A stretch of 62,776 bases of DNA from a bacterium HR15 (GCA_002898555.1 BEHR01000019.1:1-62776), one strand, 5' to 3'; positions 2,486 to 57,738 are shown, counted from the first letter of the stretch. Program-made: numbers and translations. The notes: a model not told the origin generated them from the sequence alone.

Positions 2486-5400
2486 ACCGACGGAGAAGCC
2501 GAAGCGCCGAAGAAAAAAGGCGGACACCGCCCCCGCGGTGGAACCGGTCGAGCAGGCTGTGATGGAGGAAGCTGCTCCAAAAACGCCTGAAGCGGAGCAG
2601 ACCCCTGTGCGATGGCGCGCCCGACGCCGTCGCAAGGACATCCCTCCCGAATCTCCAGCCGAAGCCGCTCCCGCCGAGCCGAGCTTGGAGGGTGAGCCTC
2701 CTGCCGCGCCGAGCTTGGAGGGCGAGGCTCCCGCCGCGCCGAAAAAGCCGAAAAGAGGGAAGAGGGCTTCATCGGCTGATGTGCAAACAGCAGGTGCTGC
2801 CCCCGTCGAAGAGGAACCTACTCGCAAGCGGCGCGCCCGCCGACGCAAGGCAGAACCCGAAGCTGTTCCGGAAGCTGTCGGGGAAATACCCACGCCTCAA
2901 GCGGAAGAAGCGGGCATCGTCGAGACAACGATACCTCCCGAAGAGAGCACGGACATATTAGAAGTGCCACCATTAGAGGTTACACTTCGCCACCCCATCG
3001 CGCGGGTGCACTTCCATCGGGGCATTCCCCAAATCACTTTTGGCGAGCGAGTGCTGCTTCCCCTCCTCTTTTTCGGCAATCCGCATACACCGGAAGCCGC
3101 CATGCGCGTCCATCAGCAAATGCAGCTTGCCAGCGAGGCAGGGGTCACCCTCTTCGCCCTGCTGATCGTACTCCCTGTCCGCGACACAGGGGCAATCGAG
3201 GCGTTCGATGCGGTTCGCTACTGGACAACCCTCGCCCGTGAAATAAACCCCGATGCGCTCTTGCTATGGCGGATTGTGCCTGTGCCGGTCGGCAACTGGC
3301 AAAAGGAGTTTCCAGAAGCCGTGATTCGCTTTGCCGACGGCACGGTGGGTGGGCCCTCCATCTGCGCCGATCGCTGGTGGGACATCGTGCAGCGGCAACT
3401 GACGGAGCTGGTGCGTCTGGTGGAGCAGGAGGGAGAGGGTGCCAGCACGCTTGGCTACCATCTGGACTGGGGCGAATGGTTCCTGCCCGAATCGGCTGGC
3501 TATGACATGAGCGATGCCGCGGTGCAAGCGTTCCGCGAATGGCTACGACGCCACTTTCGCAACGACACCGTGAGTCTGCGCGCCAGCTGGTTCAACGGCG
3601 AGATCAACTTTAGCACGGCGTCGATTCCGCCCTTTGTGCCCAGCGCGCCCCTTACCAAGCGCCAGTTCTATGACCCACGCCGTGAAGGGCGCTGGATCGA
3701 TTACCATCAGTTCCTTTCCGATGCGACCGCCCGACGCATCCTAAGCCTGGCGCGCGCCGTCAAAGAGGCATGCCACCGACGATGCCTTGTGGGCGCGTCC
3801 TATGGCTATGTGCTGGAGTGGCGCCATCCCTATTCCGGGCATCTGGCACTGAGCGCACTGCTGCAAAGCGAGGACATCGACTTTCTCTCTGCGCCCGTCT
3901 CCTATGCGGACCGCCTGCCGGGCGGCACGGGTGCCGTCCCTGTGCCCGTGGAATCGGTGCAACTGCATCACAAACTCTTCCTCGCCGAGGAGGACTACCG
4001 TGCCCCTTTTGGCAAAGTCATGCGATTCGACCAGCCAGCGACGGAGCATTCGCTGACACCAAGCACAGGCAGCGAGGAGGACTATAACCCACCCCTGCGC
4101 TCAGCAGAGGCTTTCGCACAAGTACAACGCCGCTCTCTGATGCAGGCACTCACGCATGGCTTTGGCGAAGTGTGGATGGATTTGTGGGGCGAAGGCTGGC
4201 TGATGCACCCAGCGGCCTGGGAGCAGATTGCCGAGTTCCAAAAAATGTGGGGTTTGCGCGAGCGCAAAATCTTTTCCTCTGTGGTACCCGTTGAGGTCGG
4301 AGAAAAAACGGTTCTCGGTCAAATGGAGCCTGACCTTGCCGTGCTGATCGATCCAACGAGCCTGAGCTATGTGCGGGTTGGCTCCCCCCTGATCCAGCAG
4401 GTGATTGTTCAGGCGAGGGAGGCTATCATGCGCGCGGGCATCTCCTATGGCTTCTACCTGCTGGACGATGTGTTGCGACGCGATTTCCCCCGCTCGCGCC
4501 TGGTGCTGTTTCTGAACGCATGGAACATCAAGCCGTCCATACGCGAAGCGATTCGGAGGCGATTACAACGCGATGGGCGTGTGCTTATCTGGCTCTACGC
4601 CGCCTCGCTGTTTGACAACCACCGACATGCCCTGGAGACCGCGCGCGAAGTGACAGGGCTTGCCCTTGCACTCCAGCCGTGGGCGAGCCCCCAAGGCTCC
4701 CAGATTGTAGACCCACTCCATCCTATTGTGCGCGAAATGAAAAGCGATAAGCTCGGCATCCAACAGCGCTGGGAACCATCCTTCTACGCGCTGGCGGGTG
4801 AGTGCCGAGTGATTGGCGAGTATATCGAGACGGGACTCCCCTCGCTAACTGTGGCGGAGTATGACCACTGGCGAGCGGTGTTCATTGGGGAGCGCACGCT
4901 GACGCCCGAACTGCTGCGCGGAATCGCCCGTTGGGCAGGCGTGCATGTATGGTGCGCGACCAACGATGTGGTGCAAGCGCGCCCGCCGCTGGTGCATATC
5001 CATGCGAGCAAGGGGGGCGAAAAGCCACTGAACTTGCCTGCACCCCTCTGGGTGTATGACCTGACCGAGGGCATCATGTCCGAAGAGGCAGTGCTTGAGC
5101 ATCGAATCGGTATGAACGAAGGGGAGAGTCGCCTGTTCTTAGTGGGTTCACGCGCCGCCATCGAAGCGTTGCTAACGGGCACGGACGAGGGAGAAGACCT
5201 GATCGCCCTGATAGAACCGACCGCTGCCCATAGCACGGAGCCATCTTGGAGCGCGCATCCCGATTTGCTGGACGAAGCGGCCATCGCACTGGTGCAGCCA
5301 TTGCCCATGTCAGGCGAGGCTCCCGCCGAGCCGAGATTGGAGGGTGAGGTTCCCGCTGAGCTGAGATTGGAGGGCGAGGCTCCCGCCGAGCCGAAAAGAA

Positions 5401-46695: not shown

Positions 46696-46853
46696 GAACT
46701 GTTTAAAAACTGGAGGTCAAGGAGATGGGCAGGCATTCACGCTTGGGCATTTTGGAGGGCGAGGCTCCCGCCGAGCCGAATCTGGAGGGCGAGGCTCCCG
46801 CCGAGCCGTTCCAACCAACGCCGTGCTGGGACAGGACTGTCTTAGTCACGCAT
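46696..46853. mobile_element. Truncated inverted copy of the MITE-like element
   Basis: Begins GAACTGTTTAAAAACTGGAG, matching the reverse complement of the right end of the element at 1062-1273, and continues through two 30-bp units to GACTGTCTTAGTCACG. The other terminal repeat is missing. Confidence 0.6.
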
Positions 46854-46861
46854 CCTCCCCC

Positions 46862-46891
46862 TTGACAAAGATGCATCGAATGGGGTATAAT
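46862..46891 (+). promoter_or_regulatory. Consensus promoter of the metalloprotease gene
   Basis: TTGACA (46862-46867), 18-nt spacer, TATAAT (46886-46891) preceded by GGGG. The leader of about 37 nt includes GGAGG at 46924-46928 and a possible GCTATAAAAAGC hairpin. Confidence 0.8.
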
Positions 46892-46934
46892 AGGAACGCT
46901 ATAAAAAGCGAGGAACCGACGACGGAGGTGTATG

Positions 46935-49115
46935 ATGGTTGATCAGGCAATAGCAAAACAGAAGCGAAACCTCACGACTCGCTCTAATTCAGCGGGGGGG
47001 CGATGTATAGCGACTGTCCTAACAATCCTACTCCCCGTGCTGCTTTGCGCTCAACCTGAACCTTCGGACAGTCCAACCCAAACAGCCCCAAGCTCTACTT
47101 CGAGTATTTCCACCTCACAGGATTACGGGCGCCTTTTAGGGGGTGTTCCGAAAACAAGCCTCACGGTTTGCGCCCCTGTCGGTTCATACGCTGTGACGCT
47201 TTTCACTAACCTGCTGGGTGGTTCGGGCGAGACCTATTTAATCAATCCGGGGCAGAGCCTAACCTTATCCGATATCGAGCGTTCCTTCTGGGCTGTCAAG
47301 GGCACAACTTATTCCACTTCACCCGTTCGCTTCAACCTAATCGGGCAAACACGCTTTGAACTCAAGTACCGCAACACTCTGCCCACCGCGTTGCAATCGA
47401 TCTACTATCCCAACCAGCCCTCTGTCTCCGTTGAACTCCCGTATTTAGCCTTTGTGCAACAGGTCTCTTATGGCAGGTTAGCATTATCTTCGGGTAATTG
47501 GACGGTCAACATCGATGTGCGCACACGATTGTGCCATAGCGCGACGGACGCGACCATCAGCCCTAATTGTGCGGGGATCACAGGGCAAGAGGGGTGTGCT
47601 GATCTTGTGGGGCAGTTGCAAGTTGCCCGCAACTCCAGCAACCCGGGCGCCAATTGTGGGTCGGGCGCTTGCTGATGGTTTGACCCACCCGCCAGCTATT
47701 ATGGGGAGAACTATCGTCGCTCTTGGCGAGCAGGTACGCTTTCGCTGACCTTCAATTGGAACGATACGGAAGGCACGGGCAACATACAAACATCTCCCAG
47801 CGGAGGCACCGTGGAAGGAGTTCAGGTAAGTCTTAGTCCCGCGCCAAACGACTATTTCCGTCTCAGTGCCACCAGCGAGGTCTTCAAAGGGCTTATCGTA
47901 ATGCGTAAGCGGGCTTTTCTGGACGGGAGCAAAAGTTTGGATCCCTTAGGCTTTCCCGAATTGGGCGAGAATGAGCTGGTGTTTCGAGAAACCCCGACGG
48001 GCGTGACGCTACAGACCGCGGTCAGCGCGTGGATGGTTGCCTCGCCTCCAGAGTCCTTCTTGCTGCGCATTCCCAATCCCGACGGGAGCGAAACCGTGAT
48101 TAGCGATGTTGTGGAGTGGTATGCCTCTCGGCTTTTCTGGCGCAGCCGCATCCCCTTTAGTTTCTTCGACTGGCATTATGGCTATGACCGTTTTGGGGGT
48201 CAATCGGGCAACATTTTTATTTGGGAGAGGGCGCGCTACTCTGCACCTCTTCTGCCTGATTATAATCCGAATTCCTCCACCAACCTGCTTGGGGCTCAGG
48301 TGATGGAGATGGTGTTTCGCGAGCGTTCGGGCTCGCCTGCAGTGGTGGTTGGGCGTGCACGCTATGAGGTCTTTTTCCCTGCAACGGGGTCGCGTCATCC
48401 ATCAGGTGCTGTTAGCGAGCCTGCCGGATTGACCATTCCCAACTGGTTCTATTACTACTGGCGTGCGATGGGCAGTCCTGCCGTGGTGTTTACTAACCAG
48501 AACCCATTTCCGTTTGGTAATGTAGCAGGCTTTTACATAACAGGGCGCCCACATGTCTATGTGCGTAATCATACAGCGAACTACACCACTCGCGATCGCC
48601 CTCTGTTTGCTATTCGTCAAGGGCAGTGCCCACAAAATGTGCCTGCGAATGTGGTGAAGGCTGTGGATACAATCACCGTGCGTGGGATTCATGCATTTGC
48701 TTGGACTGTCTATCACGAGTTTGGGCACAAGTGGAGTTATGAAACCACGGTACAAGTCGCTCCCGGCGTCTATACACGCATCTATTATCCACCTGCTGCG
48801 TTTGACAGTGATGGAGACAATTTAGCCGATGCATGGGAAGCCCGGAACGGACTTTGCCCCTATACGGCGCATACTACAAATGCATATCCACAGTATCAGT
48901 TTAACGATTTGCCTTCGGATCCCGAAGTCGTTGCAGATGTGCTCGCTTATGGGAGTTTACTAAATAACATCGATCTTTGGAAGCATGATTGGTCAGACCA
49001 AGGTTTACGGTACGGCAACCCCATAGAGCGGTTTACTGCTTTTCCGTGGCGCTACAACAGCACGGGCAGGAACACATCTGCCCATTCCGACCTACTAACA
49101 GGGTGGAACCCCTAA
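46935..49115 (+). pseudogene. Secreted zinc metalloprotease interrupted by an in-frame TGA
   Basis: One frame from the ATG at 46935 (GGAGG at 6 nt) to 49115, about 726 codons, broken only by TGA at 47673-47675 in ...GSGAC-TGA-WFDPPASYY. Signal peptide ends near VLLCAQPEPS. The region before the TGA is beta-rich without motif; after it come IFIWERARYSAPLLPD, then the zinc site AWTVYHEFGHKWSY (HEXXH) and DSDGDNLADAWEARNG, a Ca-binding thrombospondin type 3-like motif. The C-terminal 35 residues (YGNPIERFTAFPWRYNSTGR and on) recur downstream as gene remnants. TGG to TGA mutation, sequencing error or recoding are all possible. Family beyond zincin not recognised. Confidence 0.65.
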
Positions 49116-49133
49116 CGAAGGAGGATAGTAACC

Positions 49134-50312
49134 ATGCAAACGAGAAAAATGAGGATGTTTGCGCTCATGCTCACTGCAGGGCTGGCAACTCTTGCCACTG
49201 CGGTCGCGCAACAGACTGCACCTGCCCAAACCAATAACACGGCACGGCTCACCTCGTGGATCCAAAGCCTCGACATCGACCAACTTGACCCGAACCAGGA
49301 AGCCAATCTTGCTAAAATCTACCTGATGCTCCGCTGTGAGGATATTCCTGCCGCCCGACGACTGGAGTATGCCCGACGCTATCTGCGCGGCGACTATAAG
49401 TACGCTCGTCCCATCGCCCGAAAACCTGAAGAGATACGCACGGAACTCTACTGGTGCGTTGTAAGTGCTGCTACAGTCGTTTTGGGCAAGCTCAACGACA
49501 CGGCGTCCATTCCGCTGCTTGAAGAGAAACTGAAGCAGTGGGAGACCGAGCGCGAGAAACCTTTGGAGGAGCGCACGATGGTCGCCTTTAACCCTGTGAA
49601 GGCACAGGCGGTGCTGGCGCGACTGAAAGCGGTGCGCGCAATCCCTGAGGTCAAGACGGCTGAGGATTTACTGCGTCGTTTGGACTATATGTTGCGCACA
49701 ATCGGTTTTGAAGGGTCTCGGCAAGCGTTTCTGCGGGCGTTAGAGCGCGAAGTCAAGGCGACAGAGGGTATCGTAGATGGCGGCGGACCGGGTATCTACG
49801 AGGAAATCCTTATGCAATATGGGCAGATGGTTTTGGAGGCAGGGTGGCAAGGGATTGATATAGAGCCTGCCTGTAGTTGGGTGAGTCTGAACTTAGGGGA
49901 GCGTCCTTGGCGTCCTGTACGGGAGGTTTTTGCGGTGTATGTGCAGTTGGCGAAAGTGCCTCGCGCTAAGGTGGCGCAGTGGATCGTGGAGGACGCGCTG
50001 CGTTGGCAGCGGCTGACACCACGCGAGGAATGCTACTTGCAGGTTTTGGCGGATCAGGGCGTTTCGGTGGTGTCGTTGGTGTGGGAGAAGTTGGAGTGGG
50101 CGGCGCGTCATCGGGATCAGGTTCAAGGTACTGGGATGGGCTTGGTGGGTTTACTGAAGGTGTTGGTGACAGTTGGTGGCGAGCAAGCCTTGCCTGTGAT
50201 AGAGCCGTTCACTCACGATGAGCATGAGTGGGTGCGGCATTACGCCTGCCAAGCGAAGGAGTACATCCAGCAAGGGAAGGTGTTTAGTTTCGGTGGTGGC
50301 CCTAATTTTTGA
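49134..50312 (+). CDS. Secreted helical-repeat paralog 1 of the tandem array
   Basis: 392 residues. Signal peptide MQTRKMRMFALMLTAGLATL ending near AVAQQ. The conserved family start is TSWIQSLDIDQLDPNQEANL, then KIYLMLRCEDIPAARRLEYA; the body looks alpha-helical, with HEAT-like pairs (SIPLLEEKLKQWE, AVLARLKAVRAIPEV) and a C-terminal ALPVIEPFTHDEHEWVRHYA. I recognise no database family. AAGGAGG lies 9 nt before the ATG. It starts 18 bp after the metalloprotease stop, so they share a transcript. Nearly identical to paralog 5 over most of its length. A structural or inhibitory role toward the protease is conceivable, not shown. Confidence 0.72.
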   Translation: MQTRKMRMFALMLTAGLATLATAVAQQTAPAQTNNTARLTSWIQSLDIDQLDPNQEANLAKIYLMLRCEDIPAARRLEYARRYLRGDYKYARPIARKPEEIRTELYWCVVSAATVVLGKLNDTASIPLLEEKLKQWETEREKPLEERTMVAFNPVKAQAVLARLKAVRAIPEVKTAEDLLRRLDYMLRTIGFEGSRQAFLRALEREVKATEGIVDGGGPGIYEEILMQYGQMVLEAGWQGIDIEPACSWVSLNLGERPWRPVREVFAVYVQLAKVPRAKVAQWIVEDALRWQRLTPREECYLQVLADQGVSVVSLVWEKLEWAARHRDQVQGTGMGLVGLLKVLVTVGGEQALPVIEPFTHDEHEWVRHYACQAKEYIQQGKVFSFGGGPNF

Positions 50313-51438
50313 AGGCTTCTGGCTTGTTAGCGTGCTGACGGTGATGGCTCAGCCTGCGGTGGGAGAGCCACAGAGGGTACTATCTGCCCCCACGGCGTGG
50401 CTGCACAGGCTTGACATCGATCAGTTAGACCCGAAGCAGAAGGAAAACTTACCTAAGATTACGCTCCTGCTTCGGAGCGAGGATATCCCCAGAACACGAC
50501 GGCTGGAGTACGCGCGAAGATACCTTCGCGGCGAGTGTAAGTTTCCCATTACAACACTAACGCACGATCCATCCGTGGACGGCAACTACCGATATGTGCT
50601 GAATGCAGCGATCTCGGCTATCGGGCGATTGGATGATACCGAGTCGATAGCCCTGTTGGAGACGAAATTGGCGCAGTGGGAGGAGGAGCAGCAGAAGCCC
50701 CCTCACGAGCAACGCGGGGTAATCCCAAACACGCTCGCGGCGCGTGTGGTGCTGGCACGCCTAAAAGCGGTGCGTGAGGTGCCCACGGTCAAATCCTCAG
50801 CGGATCTAATCAATCGCTTGGAAACTATGGTGCGGTATGCGGGTTTTGAAGGTTCTGTGGATAAGTGGCTGCTTGAGTTGAAGAAGGAAATCCACTTCAC
50901 TTATCGGGCAGCCGATCTGGGCGCAGGCATCCATGAGAGGATCCTTTGGCAGTACATGCAAATGCTCTTGGCATCTGGCTGGCAGGGAATCGACATCACA
51001 GCCGCGGCTCAGATCATCCAGTTTGGCTCCGAACCGATTTATACCGTTCCCCGCGAGCGTTTTGAAACCGTAGTGCAGCTGGCTAAAATGCCGCGCGAAC
51101 AGGTAGTTCGGCATATTGTGGAGGAATCACTGCAGTGGAAAGTGCTCAGCAATGTCGAGGAGATTAAGGCGCAGGTTTTATTAGACATGGGCACATCTGT
51201 AGTGCCACTGGTGTGGGAGAAGATTGCCTGGGCGCTGCAACATCGGGATAAAGTCCAAGGCACAGGAATGGGCTTGATCGCGCTGCAGGAGGTTCTGGTC
51301 ACGCTTGCAGGCGAGCACGCCTTGCCTGTGATAGAGCCGTTCACTCACGACGAGAACGAGTGGGTACGGCATTACGCCTGCCAAGCTAAGGAGTATATCC
51401 AACAGGGGAAAGTGTTTCTGTTTGCCCCTTACTTCTGA
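50293..51438 (+). CDS. Secreted helical-repeat paralog 2, fused closely behind paralog 1
   Basis: About 381 residues if started at the GTG at 50293 (50296 equal). Unlike the others there is no spacer: the start lies inside the 3' end of paralog 1, with GGAAGGTG upstream, so a deletion probably removed the original leader. A hydrophobic stretch (VVALIFEGFWLVSVLTVMAQ) can act as signal peptide. The family motif TAWLHRLDIDQLDPKQKENL follows, then TLLLRSEDIPRTRRLEYARR. C-terminus ALPVIEPFTHDENEWVRHYA. Divergent from paralog 1, closer to paralog 3 in places. Start assignment is uncertain. Confidence 0.6.
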   Translation: MVALIFEGFWLVSVLTVMAQPAVGEPQRVLSAPTAWLHRLDIDQLDPKQKENLPKITLLLRSEDIPRTRRLEYARRYLRGECKFPITTLTHDPSVDGNYRYVLNAAISAIGRLDDTESIALLETKLAQWEEEQQKPPHEQRGVIPNTLAARVVLARLKAVREVPTVKSSADLINRLETMVRYAGFEGSVDKWLLELKKEIHFTYRAADLGAGIHERILWQYMQMLLASGWQGIDITAAAQIIQFGSEPIYTVPRERFETVVQLAKMPREQVVRHIVEESLQWKVLSNVEEIKAQVLLDMGTSVVPLVWEKIAWALQHRDKVQGTGMGLIALQEVLVTLAGEHALPVIEPFTHDENEWVRHYACQAKEYIQQGKVFLFAPYF

Positions 51439-51464
51439 TCACGGGTATTCTCCCTTGCGCTCCG

Positions 51465-51581
51465 GAGGGCTTAGAGTACGGCAATCCACGGGAGCGGCTT
51501 ACTGCTTTTCCGTGGCGCTACAACAGCACGGGCAGGAACACATCTGCCCATTCCGACCTACTAACAGGGTGGAACCCCTAA
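51465..51581 (+). pseudogene. Metalloprotease 3' remnant upstream of paralog 3
   Basis: In frame it reads EGLEYGNPRERLTAFPWRYN and continues through STGRNTSAHSDLLTGWNP to a stop, matching the last 35 residues of the metalloprotease at 46935-49115 with a few changes. There is no start or protease body. Confidence 0.7.
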
Positions 51582-51599
51582 CGAAGGAGGTTGATGACT

Positions 51600-52751
51600 A
51601 TGCGAACGCTATACAGAATGATGGCAATAACCGCTTGCTGGGCAAGCGTAGTACTAATGCAGGCGCAGTCAGCAGACTCGGTACAGACATCCAGTGCAGC
51701 TGTTCCTACAGCTTGGATTGCTCAACTGGACATAGATCAAATTGACCCACGTAAACAGGAGAACCTTCCCAAGATTACCCTACTCTTGCGAAGTTGGGAT
51801 ATACCTCGTTCAAAGCGGTTGGAATACGCGCGGCGTTATCTACGCGGCGAGTATAAGTTCCACACGCTCAACCCAGAGCCTCCGCTGCACGATAACTATT
51901 GGTACGTTCTCAACGAGGCTGTTGAAGCTCTTGGCCGGTTGAACGATGTGGAATCGATTCCTTGGCTGGAAGAAAAGCTTGCTCTCTGGGAGGCAGAGGC
52001 GAAGAAACCTGATCCAGAAAGAGCCATGGTTGTTCCTAGCTTGCCCCGTGCTCGGGCCGTTCTTGCGCGGCTCAAAGCAGTACGCGATGTGCCTCAAGTC
52101 AAGAATGCTACGGACCTCATTCGCCGGTTTGAACGCATGCTCCACCATGTAGGTTTCGTCGGCAATCTCAGCGACTGGCATCGTGAGTTGCGAAAGGAGT
52201 TTGAGGAAGCAGACAAATGCGACCACTGCGGTCCAGGTGTGCAGTATGCGATCCTGTTGCAGTACGGTCAGATGTTAATGGAGGCAGGCTGGAGAGGAGT
52301 GGATATTACCGCTGCCAGCAAGATTATTCAACTTGACTCTAAGGTTGGCTGGGAAGGTGGTGTAAAGAAAACCTTCGAAGTATATGTACAGCTCGCAAAG
52401 ATACCACTTGACAAGTTGGCACAGCATATCGTAGATGAGGCGGTGCACTGGCAAGTGTATAGCGACGGGGAGGCTCCCAAAGCTCAGGTGCTGGCCGATA
52501 TGGGTGTCACGGTACTGCCGATTGTTTGGGAAAAGTTGAAGTGGGCTGGGCAAAACCGCGACCAGCTCAAAGGCTCTGGCGTCGGCAGGGGCGTTTTGCT
52601 GGAGATACTGGTGACGGTAGGGGGAGAGCAGGCGCTGCCTCTGATTGAACCATTCCTGAACGACGAGAACGAGTGGGTGCGGCATTACGCCTGTCGGGCG
52701 AAGGAGTACATCCAACAGGGGAAAGTGTTTCTGTTTGCCCCTTACTTCTGA
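51600..52751 (+). CDS. Secreted helical-repeat paralog 3
   Basis: 383 residues from the ATG at 51600, 9 nt after AAGGAGG as in paralog 1; an ATG at 51594 is too close. Signal peptide MRTLYRMMAITACWASVVLM ending near QAQS. Family motifs: TAWIAQLDIDQIDPRKQENL, KITLLLRSWDIPRSKRLEYA, SIPWLEEKLALWEAEAKKP and C-terminal ALPLIEPFLNDENEWVRHYA. A CDHCGPG segment is peculiar to this copy. Downstream lies another metalloprotease remnant. Confidence 0.7.
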   Translation: MRTLYRMMAITACWASVVLMQAQSADSVQTSSAAVPTAWIAQLDIDQIDPRKQENLPKITLLLRSWDIPRSKRLEYARRYLRGEYKFHTLNPEPPLHDNYWYVLNEAVEALGRLNDVESIPWLEEKLALWEAEAKKPDPERAMVVPSLPRARAVLARLKAVRDVPQVKNATDLIRRFERMLHHVGFVGNLSDWHRELRKEFEEADKCDHCGPGVQYAILLQYGQMLMEAGWRGVDITAASKIIQLDSKVGWEGGVKKTFEVYVQLAKIPLDKLAQHIVDEAVHWQVYSDGEAPKAQVLADMGVTVLPIVWEKLKWAGQNRDQLKGSGVGRGVLLEILVTVGGEQALPLIEPFLNDENEWVRHYACRAKEYIQQGKVFLFAPYF

Positions 52752-52777
52752 TCACGGGTATTCTCCCCTGCGCTCCG

Positions 52778-52879
52778 GAGGGCTTAGAGTACGGCAATCC
52801 ACGGGAGCGGCTTACTGCTTTTCCGTGGCATTATAACAGCACGGGCAGGAACACATCTGCCCATTCCGACCTACTAACG
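52778..52879 (+). pseudogene. Second metalloprotease 3' remnant, upstream of paralog 4
   Basis: Reads EGLEYGNPRERLTAFPWHYN then STGRNTSAHSDLLT and diverges before the usual GWNP end. The preceding 27 bp after the paralog 3 stop are nearly identical to those after paralog 2. Confidence 0.65.
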
Positions 52880-52939
52880 GATCTATCACGACCATACGGT
52901 TGCCAGTAGTACCAACTAAGAGATAGGAGGCTGATGAAC

Positions 52940-54109
52940 ATGCGACAGACACAGCTGCAGAAGTGGCTCGTGAGCAGTATTGCCTTAATGAGCTGCTGGC
53001 TATTGATGGAAGCACAGCAGACCAGCGAGACTTCCCAGCCAGAAACCCAGCCACGCCAGATCACCTCCCAAGCCCTGCGGTTTGCCAAACAGGTCGAGCA
53101 GCTGAACCCAAACGATGTCCACGATCTCTACAAGATCTTCGTGGTTTTACGCTGCCAAGATGTGCCTTTAGCACAGCGGAAGGAATTGGCTCTACGCATT
53201 CTTACCGGGGCTTACCCCAATAAACCCGACTTCCGATGGATCGACAGTGGGAAGCAAGCGGGGCTAATCGAAGCAGCCTTAGTCGCACTATCTCACATGC
53301 ATATAGACGATCCGTCCGTCCTACCCACTCTGGAAGAGTATCTGCCCAAATGGGAACGGATTGCTCGATGGGAGCAGACGGACCTCGCGCTTAGGGAACC
53401 GTTGCCAGATGAACTCAAACGCTTGGCGGAGCGAGTGTCTCCCAATTTAACATTACTGAAAGCCATCATTATTCGCCTTAAGGCTGTGCAGGCGGTACCT
53501 GAGGTGAAATCGGCGACTGACTTAGAGCGGCGGCTGGAGGTGATGCTAAAAGAAGCTAAGCTGAGCCGTTCGGAGCTCAAGCAGGGATATGAGGAATTTT
53601 GGGAAGCCATTAAACAAGATAAGCACATCACGGCAAAATCCAGATTTGTCTTTTATCTGGTCGGGGAATATGGGCGAATGCTGTTTCACTATGCCAAGCG
53701 CGGCATGGATGTCCAAGCTGCCTATCAGGATCTGGACATCAAAGGATTGCAGGGCTATGCAAAGTTTGGTGCAACAGCACGTGACTCTGCTCAGTTGATC
53801 GACCAGTTGATACAAGCACAAGGTGATGATCGGACAACTGGGCAACTGCTCGTTGATGAAGGAATTCGCGTTGTACCGCTAATTATGCAGCGATTGGAGA
53901 CCATCAAAGATGACCGGAGTCAGATTTCATCCACAGGGATGGGCGTGGTAGTCCTGTTGGAGGTGTTGGCAACACTGGCGGGAGAGTCCGCGCTGCCGTG
54001 GATAGAACCATTTACGCAAGATGAGCGGGTGTGGCTCTGTCACTATGCACGCATGGCGAAAGAATGGATAGAGCAAGGTAAAGTTTATGGGTTCAACTCG
54101 TCCTTATAG
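52940..54109 (+). CDS. Secreted helical-repeat paralog 4, the most divergent
   Basis: 389 residues from the ATG at 52940 (TAGGAGG at 9 nt). Signal peptide MRQTQLQKWLVSSIALMSCW ending near MEAQQ. The family core is recognisable but diverged: ALRFAKQVEQLNPNDVHDLY, KIFVVLRCQDVPLAQRKELA, IIIRLKAVQAVPEVKSATDL, GMGVVVLLEVLATLAGESAL, PWIEPFTQDERVWLCHYARM. A longer acidic insert lies near 130-160. Conservation concentrates in the N-terminal motif and the C-terminal helix pair. Confidence 0.68.
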   Translation: MRQTQLQKWLVSSIALMSCWLLMEAQQTSETSQPETQPRQITSQALRFAKQVEQLNPNDVHDLYKIFVVLRCQDVPLAQRKELALRILTGAYPNKPDFRWIDSGKQAGLIEAALVALSHMHIDDPSVLPTLEEYLPKWERIARWEQTDLALREPLPDELKRLAERVSPNLTLLKAIIIRLKAVQAVPEVKSATDLERRLEVMLKEAKLSRSELKQGYEEFWEAIKQDKHITAKSRFVFYLVGEYGRMLFHYAKRGMDVQAAYQDLDIKGLQGYAKFGATARDSAQLIDQLIQAQGDDRTTGQLLVDEGIRVVPLIMQRLETIKDDRSQISSTGMGVVVLLEVLATLAGESALPWIEPFTQDERVWLCHYARMAKEWIEQGKVYGFNSSL

Positions 54110-54149
54110 CCCTTCGTGGTGGAACCCCTAACGAAGGAGGTTGATGACT

Positions 54150-55322
54150 ATGCGAATAACGATGATGATCGCTATGACGCTCACTGCAGGGCTGGCAACT
54201 CTCGCCACAACGCCTGCACAACAAACGGCACCTGAACCAACTAACAACACGGCAAAGCCCACCTCCTGGATCCAAAGCCTCGACATCGACCAACTTGACC
54301 CGAACCAGGAAGCCAATCTTGCCAAAATCGACCTAATGCTCCGCTGTGAGGATATTCCTGCTGCCCGAAGACTGGAGTATGCCCGACGCTATCTGCGCGG
54401 CGACTATAAGTACGCTCGTCCCGTTGCCCGAAAGCCTGAAGAGATACGCACGGAACTCTACTGGTGCGTTGTAAGGGATGCTACGGTCGTTTTGGGCAAG
54501 CTCAACGACACGGCGTCCATTCCGCTGCTTGAAGAGAAACTGAAGCAGTGGGAGACCGAGCGCGAGAAACCTTTGGAAGAGCGCACGATGGTCGCCTTTG
54601 ACCCTGTGAAGGCACAGGCGGTGCTGGCGCGACTGAAAGCGGTGCGCGCAATCCCTGAGGTCAAGACGGCTGAGGATTTACTGCGTCGTTTGGACTATAT
54701 GTTGCGCACAATCGGTTTTGAAGGGTCTCGGCAAGCGTTTCTGCGGGCGTTAGAGCGCGAAGTCAAGGCGACAGAGGGTATCGTAGATGGCGGCGGACCG
54801 GGTATCTACGAGGAAATCCTTATGCAATATGGGCAGATGGTTTTGGAGGCAGGGTGGCAAGGGATTGATATAGAGCCTGCCTGTAGTTGGGTGAGTCTGA
54901 ACTTAGGGGAGCGTCCTTGGCGTCCTGTACGGGAGGTTTTTGCGGTGTATGTGCAGTTGGCGAAAGTGCCTCGCGCTAAGGTGGCGCAGTGGATCGTGGA
55001 GGACGCGCTGCGTTGGCAGCGGCTGACACCACGCGAGGAATGCTACTTGCAGGTTTTGGCGGATCAGGGCGTTTCGGTGGTGTCGTTGGTGTGGGAGAAG
55101 TTGGAGTGGGCGGCGCGTCATCGGGATCAGGTTCAAGGTACTGGGATGGGCTTGGTGGGTTTACTGAAGGTGTTGGTGACAGTTGGTGGCGAGCAAGCCT
55201 TGCCTGTGATAGAGCCGTTCACTCACGATGAGCATGAGTGGGTGCGGCATTACGCCTGCCAAGCGAAGGAGTACATCCAGCAAGGGAAGGTGTTTAGTTT
55301 CGGTGGTGGCCCTAATTTTTGA
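54150..55322 (+). CDS. Secreted helical-repeat paralog 5, recent duplicate of paralog 1
   Basis: 390 residues from the ATG at 54150, 9 nt after AAGGAGG. Signal peptide MRITMMIAMTLTAGLATLAT ending near PAQQ. From the motif TSWIQSLDIDQLDPNQEANL onward it matches paralog 1 almost base for base; differences are few and clustered before about 54600, and the later 700 bp look identical. The near identity extends past the stop into the first 100 bp of paralog 2. So this is a recent tandem duplication or gene conversion. Confidence 0.72.
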   Translation: MRITMMIAMTLTAGLATLATTPAQQTAPEPTNNTAKPTSWIQSLDIDQLDPNQEANLAKIDLMLRCEDIPAARRLEYARRYLRGDYKYARPVARKPEEIRTELYWCVVRDATVVLGKLNDTASIPLLEEKLKQWETEREKPLEERTMVAFDPVKAQAVLARLKAVRAIPEVKTAEDLLRRLDYMLRTIGFEGSRQAFLRALEREVKATEGIVDGGGPGIYEEILMQYGQMVLEAGWQGIDIEPACSWVSLNLGERPWRPVREVFAVYVQLAKVPRAKVAQWIVEDALRWQRLTPREECYLQVLADQGVSVVSLVWEKLEWAARHRDQVQGTGMGLVGLLKVLVTVGGEQALPVIEPFTHDEHEWVRHYACQAKEYIQQGKVFSFGGGPNF

Positions 55323-55449
55323 AGGCTTCTGGCTTGTTAGCGTGCTGACGGTGATGGCTCAGCCTGCGGTGGGAGAGCCACAGAGGGTACTATCTGCCCC
55401 CACGGCGTGGCTGCATAGGCTGAGGGTGTTCGAAAAATCGGTGGTGTAG
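55323..55449 (+). pseudogene. 5' remnant of a paralog 2 copy
   Basis: Carries the duplicated EGFWLVSVLTVMAQPAVGEP and TAWLHRL of paralog 2, then breaks off into unrelated sequence (RVFEKSVV, stop). It marks the right end of the duplicated unit, near 55421. Confidence 0.75.
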
Positions 55450-57478: not shown

Positions 57479-57738
57479 GAGACTGCCTAAGAATGGCAGG
57501 AACAGGCTGGTGCATCTGCCCGAAACTCACACCGGAGGGCGAGCGTCCCCGCGAGCCGACATGCGTGACTCACACTGGAGGGCGAGCGTCCCCGCGAGCC
57601 GACATGCGTGACGAAGACAGGCCTGACCCAGCACGGCGTCGGTTGGAACGGCTCGGCAGGAGCCTCGCCCTCCAGATTCGGCTCGGCGGGAGCCTCGCCC
57701 TCCAGATTCGGCGCGGCAGGAGCCTCGCCCTCCAAAAT
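57479..57738. mobile_element. Degenerate copy of the MITE-like element with expanded 30-bp units
   Basis: Left end GAGACTGCCTAAGAATGGCA matches the element at 1062. The interior has a duplicated GGAGGGCGAGCGTCCCCGCG segment and three GGCTCGGCAGGAGCCTCGCC units in tandem. The right terminal repeat is absent. It ends some 50 bp before the pilin gene. Confidence 0.6.

What the first reader, a model, noticed from the sequence alone, without database searches (positions are those of the whole stretch)
46935..55449. Tandem array of five secreted helical paralogs behind an HEFGH metalloprotease: candidate undescribed system
Five genes (49134, 50293, 51600, 52940, 54150) encode about 380-390-residue proteins with signal peptides, the N-terminal motif LDIDQLDP-x-x-E-N-L, a KI-x-LLLR-x-DIP helix and a C-terminal IEPF-x-DE-x-W-x-x-HYA helix. 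They start 18 bp after a secreted zinc protease and share its transcription unit and Shine-Dalgarno context. Copies range from near identical to highly diverged, which is typical of arrays under diversifying pressure such as inhibitors, immunity-type proteins or surface antigens. I recognise no family. A protease-plus-inhibitor or toxin-plus-immunity arrangement is one reading; simple copy-number expansion of a structural protein is another.
Basis: partly seen in the sequence, partly recalled or inferred. Interest (0 to 1): 0.78.

Follow-up and report, generated by a model that had tools for sequence, protein, structure and literature searches.

The report
Exported protease with HEAT-repeat partner genes
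In a group of little-known hot-spring and groundwater bacteria, a gene for an exported protein-cutting enzyme is followed by a gene for an exported helical "HEAT" protein; the enzyme's cutting half is swapped and often broken while the HEAT genes survive, so the HEAT protein is most likely the antidote that protects the cell from its own enzyme, although no activity has been tested.

Summary
The five paralogs are real and lie where stated. They are HEAT-type alpha-solenoids with signal-peptide-like N-termini, not an unrecognisable fold. (1) The peptidase next to them is broken here by an in-frame TGA; intact copies exist in relatives. (2) Tails of further peptidase genes lie upstream of paralogs 3 and 4, so the array grew from a peptidase-plus-HEAT unit. 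(3) The pair recurs across the phylum, HEAT directly downstream; every intact peptidase followed by enough sequence has one. HEAT genes stay open beside broken peptidases at six loci; the reverse was not seen. (4) Peptidase paralogs within a genome share an N-terminal part (60-99% identity) and switch abruptly to a strongly diverged HExxH domain (33-47%) followed by a different HEAT gene; one locus carries an N-truncated spare catalytic cassette with its own HEAT gene. This is the layout of polymorphic effector/immunity loci. The module also crossed genera recently (dS 0.018 against 1.45 for uvrC). HEAT genes evolve under purifying, not diversifying, selection. Best reading: exported metallopeptidase plus exported HEAT self-protection protein; blocking is inferred.

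The parts
46754..46807 (+). two units of a 24-bp dispersed repeat at the left border (50 exact copies in this genome, none in G009 or G011)
46862..46891 (+). perfect sigma-70-type promoter match (TTGACA-18-TATAAT), conserved in G009 and G011; homology to the relatives begins here
46932..47675 (+). N-terminal part of the exported metallopeptidase (signal-peptide-like start), ended by an in-frame TGA at 47673-47675
   Evidence: intact copies exist in L029 and L034
47811..49115 (+). remaining open frame of the peptidase with the HExxH catalytic domain (HEFGH at 48714-48728)
49134..50312 (+). P1, exported HEAT-repeat protein; 99% nt identical to its counterpart in genus g4 (G009)
50293..51438 (+). 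P2, exported HEAT-repeat protein; GTG start overlapping the end of P1 by 20 nt
51462..51578 (+). remnant of a peptidase C-terminus (39 codons), immediately upstream of P3
51600..52751 (+). P3, exported HEAT-repeat protein (HEAT_2 above the gathering score; modelled as an alpha-solenoid)
52775..52882 (+). remnant of a peptidase C-terminus (36 codons), upstream of P4
52940..54109 (+). P4, exported HEAT-repeat protein of a different, older subtype that groups with G009c and G017
54118..54156 (+). 39-bp leader identical to 51568-51606 (peptidase stop and Shine-Dalgarno), upstream of and into the start of P5
54150..55322 (+). P5, exported HEAT-repeat protein; its last 719 nt are identical to P1 (gene conversion or recent duplication)
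55323..55421 (+). 99-bp remnant of the 5' end of a P2-like HEAT gene
55422..55435 (+). end of a dispersed repeat, GAGGGTGTTCGAAA (58 exact copies in this genome, 23 in G009, 28 in G011, often as inverted pairs), exactly at the right border

Best explanation
The locus is a worn and expanded copy of a two-gene export module. Gene 1 encodes an exported protein with a lineage-specific N-terminal part and a C-terminal HExxH metallopeptidase domain. Gene 2, directly downstream, encodes an exported HEAT-repeat solenoid. Proposed mechanism: both are exported through the Sec route; the HEAT solenoid wraps around and blocks the catalytic domain of its own peptidase (and of near relatives) outside the cytoplasm, so the producer is protected while the peptidase acts on other cells or external targets. 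The catalytic domain and its HEAT gene are exchanged as cassettes by recombination. In this genome the peptidase has been disabled and five HEAT genes are kept, as expected of protection genes retained against peptidases of relatives. Shown here by computation: pair conservation, gene order, signal-peptide-like starts, HExxH conservation, HEAT fold, cassette switching, inter-genus transfer, broken peptidase, purifying selection. Inferred: that the HEAT protein binds and blocks the peptidase; that the target is another cell.
For: Linkage: peptidase and HEAT profiles hit the same loci in four families of the phylum (f1, f7, f17, f24), HEAT directly downstream on the same strand with short gaps or overlaps. 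All ten intact or nearly intact peptidases with sequence downstream have one, and two distant homologues also have a HEAT-type neighbour. Only seven open frames of this genome match HEAT_2, so this is not chance. Cassette switching: C1a/C1b N-part 99%, catalytic part 43%, HEAT 32%; G009a/G009c 89/47/33%; G204_85/G204_192 60/33/35%. In the C1 locus a 416-bp block just upstream of the junction is duplicated in front of an N-truncated second catalytic cassette with its own HEAT gene. Asymmetric loss: HEAT open beside interrupted or deleted peptidases at six loci (window, L098, L099, L100, L102, L103), reverse never; tails of lost peptidases sit in front of surviving HEAT genes here, between the two HEAT genes of G122, and downstream of HEAT in G009. 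Transfer: catalytic domain + P1 + most of P2 nearly identical to another genus (dS 0.018 for P1) while uvrC has dS 1.45 and Mfd 60% aa identity; the G009 contig carries that genus's own mfd. HEAT genes under purifying selection. Precedents: exported ankyrin solenoid Bd3460 blocks the endopeptidase encoded just upstream (PMC4686830); HEAT repeats are a listed immunity class and HExxH peptidases a listed toxin class in polymorphic toxins (PMC3482391).
Against: No binding or inhibition was tested, and no complex could be modelled. HEAT subtypes do not track catalytic-domain subtypes at long range: G003 carries C1b- and C1c-type HEAT genes, yet its catalytic domain is equally far from C1a and C1b (40% and 39%), and catalytic-domain/HEAT distances correlate weakly (Spearman 0.32, no better than N-part/HEAT). 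The asymmetric loss could partly reflect the peptidase gene being about 1.8 times longer (0.64^6 is about 0.07), and four of the six loci are in one genome. All catalytic domains are one family rather than unrelated toxins, and no known delivery domain was found.
Confidence: 0.5

Rival explanations
1. The HEAT protein is a positive partner: a separate activator or substrate clamp for the peptidase, as the HEAT-like activator domain is for clostridial collagenase or the helical domain IV for M1 aminopeptidases, but on its own chain. Swapping of catalytic domain plus HEAT gene would then change substrate range.
For: Obligate adjacency. Among the weak structural matches are collagenase G (VIA Z 6.9, 104 residues, rmsd 4.6) and the helical domains of M1 peptidases (Foldseek E 0.27-1.4).
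Against: Those matches are at the level any helical repeat gives (the tool's own note). An activator has no reason to outlive its enzyme, yet HEAT genes stay open next to broken or deleted peptidases and accumulate (five here).
Confidence: 0.22
2. The HEAT protein is a folding, export or surface-docking partner of the peptidase without a blocking role, for example a periplasmic chaperone or an anchor on the cell surface.
For: Export signals on both and translational proximity.
Against: Does not explain the multiplication and survival of HEAT genes after peptidase loss; nothing points to a surface anchor.
Confidence: 0.14
3. Copy-number expansion of an exported structural or scavenging protein; the peptidase is only a chromosomal neighbour carried along.
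For: In the window alone the peptidase is broken and HEAT genes expanded.
Against: The same two genes in the same order recur in four families with homologues only about 35% identical.
Confidence: 0.08
4. Part of the array is an assembly artefact: near-identical P1/P5 blocks joined wrongly in a metagenome-assembled genome, and the TGA a sequencing error.
For: P5's 3' half and 100 bp downstream are identical to P1/P2; no reads are available.
Against: P5's 5' half differs at 41 sites and has its own leader; P1-P2 with the upstream peptidase is reproduced on an independent contig of another genome (L029); interruptions at other positions occur in other loci.
Confidence: 0.06

Closest known systems
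Bd3459/Bd3460 of Bdellovibrio (exported peptidase and exported ankyrin self-protection protein; PMC4686830)
   Same: peptidase gene followed by the gene of an exported alpha-helical repeat protein; both exported; repeat protein of a kind made for protein-protein contacts
   Different: ankyrin rather than HEAT repeats; serine DD-endopeptidase rather than HExxH metallopeptidase; no cassette switching or arrays described there; inhibition shown there, only inferred here
MafB/MafI polymorphic toxins of Neisseria (PMC4287609)
   Same: signal peptide, conserved N-terminal part, variable C-terminal active domain, partner gene downstream, spare C-terminal cassettes with their own partner gene in the locus
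   Different: no DUF1020 or other known delivery domain; the variable domain is always the same peptidase family; the partner has an export signal
Tox-MPTase and Imm-HEAT classes of polymorphic toxin systems (Zhang et al. 2012, PMC3482391)
   Same: HExxH metallopeptidases as C-terminal toxins; HEAT repeats as immunity proteins
   Different: there HEAT immunity goes with a REase-type nuclease toxin and the MPTase toxins have no listed partner; no Pfam or NCBIfam model recognises this peptidase
Clostridial collagenase G (M9) activator domain and M1 aminopeptidase domain IV
   Same: helical-repeat body next to an HExxH catalytic domain
   Different: fused in one chain there, separate genes here; fold similarity no better than generic for helical repeats
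Orphan immunity arrays (AID clusters, SAIDI-1; PMC7400221)
   Same: several intact partner genes kept without an intact cognate effector
   Different: those are T6SS/CDI immunity genes; here all copies are one HEAT family and function is inferred

Membership tests
HEAT-repeat proteins | tandem helix-turn-helix repeats matching HEAT models | tested here: met
   P3 28.9 bits against cut-off 27.7, the other paralogs below it and P4 none; relatives up to 70.8 bits; alphaRep at E 1e-17
HEAT-repeat proteins | alpha-solenoid fold | tested here: met
   AlphaFold2 pLDDT 84.4, pTM 0.83, all helical; best structural matches are HEAT/ARM proteins
Zincin-type metallopeptidases | HExxH zinc-binding motif | tested here: met
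   H, E, H invariant in 13 aligned homologues; one distant homologue, L108, has HExxE instead
Zincin-type metallopeptidases | third metal ligand and zincin fold | tested here: inconclusive
   a conserved D-x-[EDQ] stretch about 66 residues downstream is a candidate; structure model failed at pLDDT 37
Polymorphic toxin/immunity systems | conserved N-terminal part with switched C-terminal active domain | tested here: met
   three within-genome pairs
Polymorphic toxin/immunity systems | standalone C-terminal cassettes with partner gene | tested here: met
   C1b cassette with 416-bp homology block
Polymorphic toxin/immunity systems | recognised delivery module (RHS, filamentous haemagglutinin, PAAR, WXG/LXG, MafB-N) | tested here: not met
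   no Pfam match at all in four full-length peptidases
Polymorphic toxin/immunity systems | effector harms cells lacking the partner, partner protects | not testable with these tools
   needs expression experiments
Bd3460-type self-protection proteins | exported ankyrin-repeat protein | tested here: not met
   HEAT, not ankyrin, models match
M9 collagenases / M1 aminopeptidases | helical-repeat domain fused to the peptidase | tested here: not met
   separate genes in every locus
Known anti-phage defence systems | match to a PADLOC model | tested here: not met
   only marginal hits at E 0.002-0.004 to repeat regions

The most novel reading that the evidence does not exclude
An undescribed family of exported metallopeptidase effectors with dedicated exported HEAT-solenoid immunity proteins that switch catalytic cassettes by recombination and move between genera, in Armatimonadota; the window shows a genome that has lost the effector at this locus and kept a stack of antidotes.
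Probability: 0.4. Interest if true: 0.75.

Novelty: new variant of a known kind. Interest (0 to 1): 0.55.

Why it matters
If true, it adds an exported, protease-based antagonism or self-protection module to a phylum with few cultured members, pairs a metallopeptidase family unknown to Pfam and NCBIfam with a ready-made natural binder, and gives several independent matched and mismatched enzyme/partner pairs (window/G009, C1a/C1b, G204) on which specificity can be tested directly. Even if the HEAT protein turns out to be an activator, a separate-chain HEAT partner of a peptidase would be an unusual arrangement.

Tried and rejected
Reading the paralogs as an unknown fold: rejected. Diversifying selection: gene-wide dN/dS 0.12-0.43 wherever estimable; only a gene-wide counting method was used, so site-level selection is not excluded. 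Programmed read-through of the peptidase stop: interruptions in three loci differ in codon and position (TGA, TAG, TAG), so ordinary breakage. Phage or plasmid origin: no match in plasmids, phages or viral contigs, nor in PHROGs. Known defence system: none. Structure of the peptidase domain: prediction failed, so no fold search was made with it. The collection scan used a single motif, so absence elsewhere is not shown. Correlation of catalytic-domain and HEAT distances gave no clear support for one-to-one matching at long range. Literature: no paper in the searched library joins these terms for Armatimonadota.

Full report
WHAT IS IN THE WINDOW. The window is contig C19 of a 3.04-Mb, 72-contig genome that I place in the order Fimbriimonadales, because its family relative G003 is 'Fimbriimonadales bacterium KatS3mg018'. 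A perfect sigma-70-type promoter match (46862-46891, 12 of 12 bases) is followed by a peptidase gene and five HEAT-type genes, all on the plus strand. The only plus-strand terminator-like site lies inside P3, so one transcription unit is plausible. P2 starts at a GTG that overlaps the end of P1 by 20 nt; P1, P3, P4 and P5 each have a Shine-Dalgarno-like GGAGG.

THE PARALOGS. P1 to P5 are 381-392 aa, each with a hydrophobic signal-peptide-like start. They are HEAT-repeat proteins: P3 passes Pfam's HEAT_2 score, its paralogs lie below it, and relatives in other families score higher. A profile of the family finds the alphaRep HEAT scaffolds at E 1e-17. AlphaFold2 gives a confident all-helical solenoid (pLDDT 84, pTM 0.83). 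Structural matches are generic HEAT/ARM proteins.

THE PEPTIDASE. The upstream gene is interrupted by a TGA at 47673-47675; the catalytic half with HEFGH remains open. Intact copies exist in G009 and G011. No Pfam or NCBIfam model recognises the catalytic domain and no solved structure matches its sequence. Across 13 homologues the H, E and H of HExxH are invariant, as are two aspartates and a glutamate of a calcium-site-like D-x-D-x-D stretch, a later D, and a D-W pair. It is therefore called a metallopeptidase by motif only; its fold could not be predicted.

HOW THE ARRAY GREW. Peptidase tails of 36-39 codons lie in front of P3 and P4, and a shared 39-bp leader in front of P5. P5 differs from P1 only in its first 451 nt and is then identical to it for 719 nt, continuing into a 99-bp remnant of a P2 gene. 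That remnant ends exactly where a dispersed repeat begins (GAGGGTGTTCGAAA at 55422; 58 copies in this genome, 23 in G009, 28 in G011, often as inverted pairs). The same repeat end lies a few bases upstream of the module's promoter in G009 and G011. P4 belongs to an older subtype shared with G009c and G017. The array is thus a mosaic of old subtypes plus one recent copy, not in-place diversification. Gene-wide dN/dS is 0.12-0.43 wherever it can be estimated.

THE UNIT IS A PAIR, AND IT RECURS IN THE PHYLUM. Profiles searched in 291 genomes of the phylum found strong hits for both genes in the same few genomes, in four families, including Abditibacteriales SKYG70, Armatimonadetes SKYB58 and a groundwater Armatimonadetes genome (names). 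At each such locus the HEAT gene is directly downstream of the peptidase on the same strand. Sporadic presence in related genomes fits gain and loss. HEAT-type genes are rare in this genome (seven open frames match HEAT_2), so the pairing is not chance. Two strong HEAT genes have no peptidase trace next to them (G204:C368, G017:C248); G008 is cut by the contig end, and G064 and G070 are cut or degraded.

CASSETTE SWITCHING. Within one genome, peptidase paralogs are alike in the N-terminal part and then change abruptly: C1a/C1b 99% then 43%; G009a/G009c 89% then 47%; G204_85/G204_192 60% then 33%, with HEAT partners 32-35% alike. In the second locus of the window's own genome (G000:C1, L036) the order is full peptidase, HEAT, N-truncated peptidase cassette, HEAT, HEAT. 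The truncated cassette begins with 416 bp nearly identical (97%) to the full gene just upstream of the junction. Spare C-terminal cassettes with homology before the junction are the hallmark of polymorphic effector loci such as MafB (PMC4287609).

TRANSFER BETWEEN GENERA. The module of the window and that of G009, a different genus, are 96% identical overall, and nearly identical over most of 48.35-51.05 kb, which covers the catalytic domain, P1 and most of P2. dS is 0.018 for P1, against 1.45 for uvrC. Binning error is unlikely: the G009 contig carries an mfd gene 95% identical (protein) to that of its sister G011 and only 60% to that of the window's genome.

ASYMMETRIC LOSS. Interrupted peptidases with an open HEAT gene next to them occur at six loci: the window, four in G204 (L098, L099, L100, L102) and G122 (L103). 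Stops differ in codon and place. G122 also keeps a peptidase tail between its two HEAT genes. No intact peptidase next to a broken HEAT gene was found; where both are broken (L033, L107) the module is simply decaying. The count is small and the peptidase gene is longer, so this is suggestive, not proof.

MECHANISM. Most likely the HEAT protein is the exported self-protection partner of the exported metallopeptidase, binding its catalytic domain outside the cytoplasm. This explains pairing, export of both, cassette exchange of catalytic domain with HEAT gene, and retention of HEAT genes after peptidase loss. The best functional precedent is Bd3460, an exported ankyrin solenoid encoded just downstream of the peptidase that it sterically blocks (PMC4686830). 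HEAT repeats as immunity proteins and HExxH peptidases as toxins are both listed classes of polymorphic toxin systems, but not with each other (PMC3482391). The main rival, an activator or clamp, cannot be excluded. It is not filed as a polymorphic toxin because no known delivery module was found and toxicity is untested. Evidence against simple one-to-one matching: HEAT subtypes do not track catalytic subtypes at long range.

VERDICT. Function is inferred.

Noticed in passing
46754-46807, 1191-1214, 5369-5392, 57680-57703: A 24-bp repeat (GGAGGGCGAGGCTCCCGCCGAGCC, read as GGEAPAEP-like) occurs 50 times exactly in this genome and never in G009 or G011.
   Followed up: partly
55422-55435: End of a dispersed repeat with copies often in inverted pairs 126-230 bp apart (MITE-like), some about 1 kb apart (insertion-sequence-like); 58 copies in this genome, 23 in G009, 28 in G011, none in G003.
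   Followed up: partly
L036:5861-12559 (G000:C1:25860-32558): Second peptidase/HEAT locus of the same genome with a spare catalytic cassette; a decayed version lies in G011 (L107).
   Followed up: yes
L119:3-4316: A Spirochaetales surface-type protein of over 1400 aa ends in the same NWFYYY...HExxH...DWAxxG domain but has no HEAT neighbour.
   Followed up: no
L108:209-3718 and L109:2-2757: Distant pairs: a dockerin-bearing peptidase homologue with HExxE in place of HExxH followed by a strong HEAT gene, and a FlgD_ig-bearing one followed by a HEAT_2 gene.
   Followed up: partly
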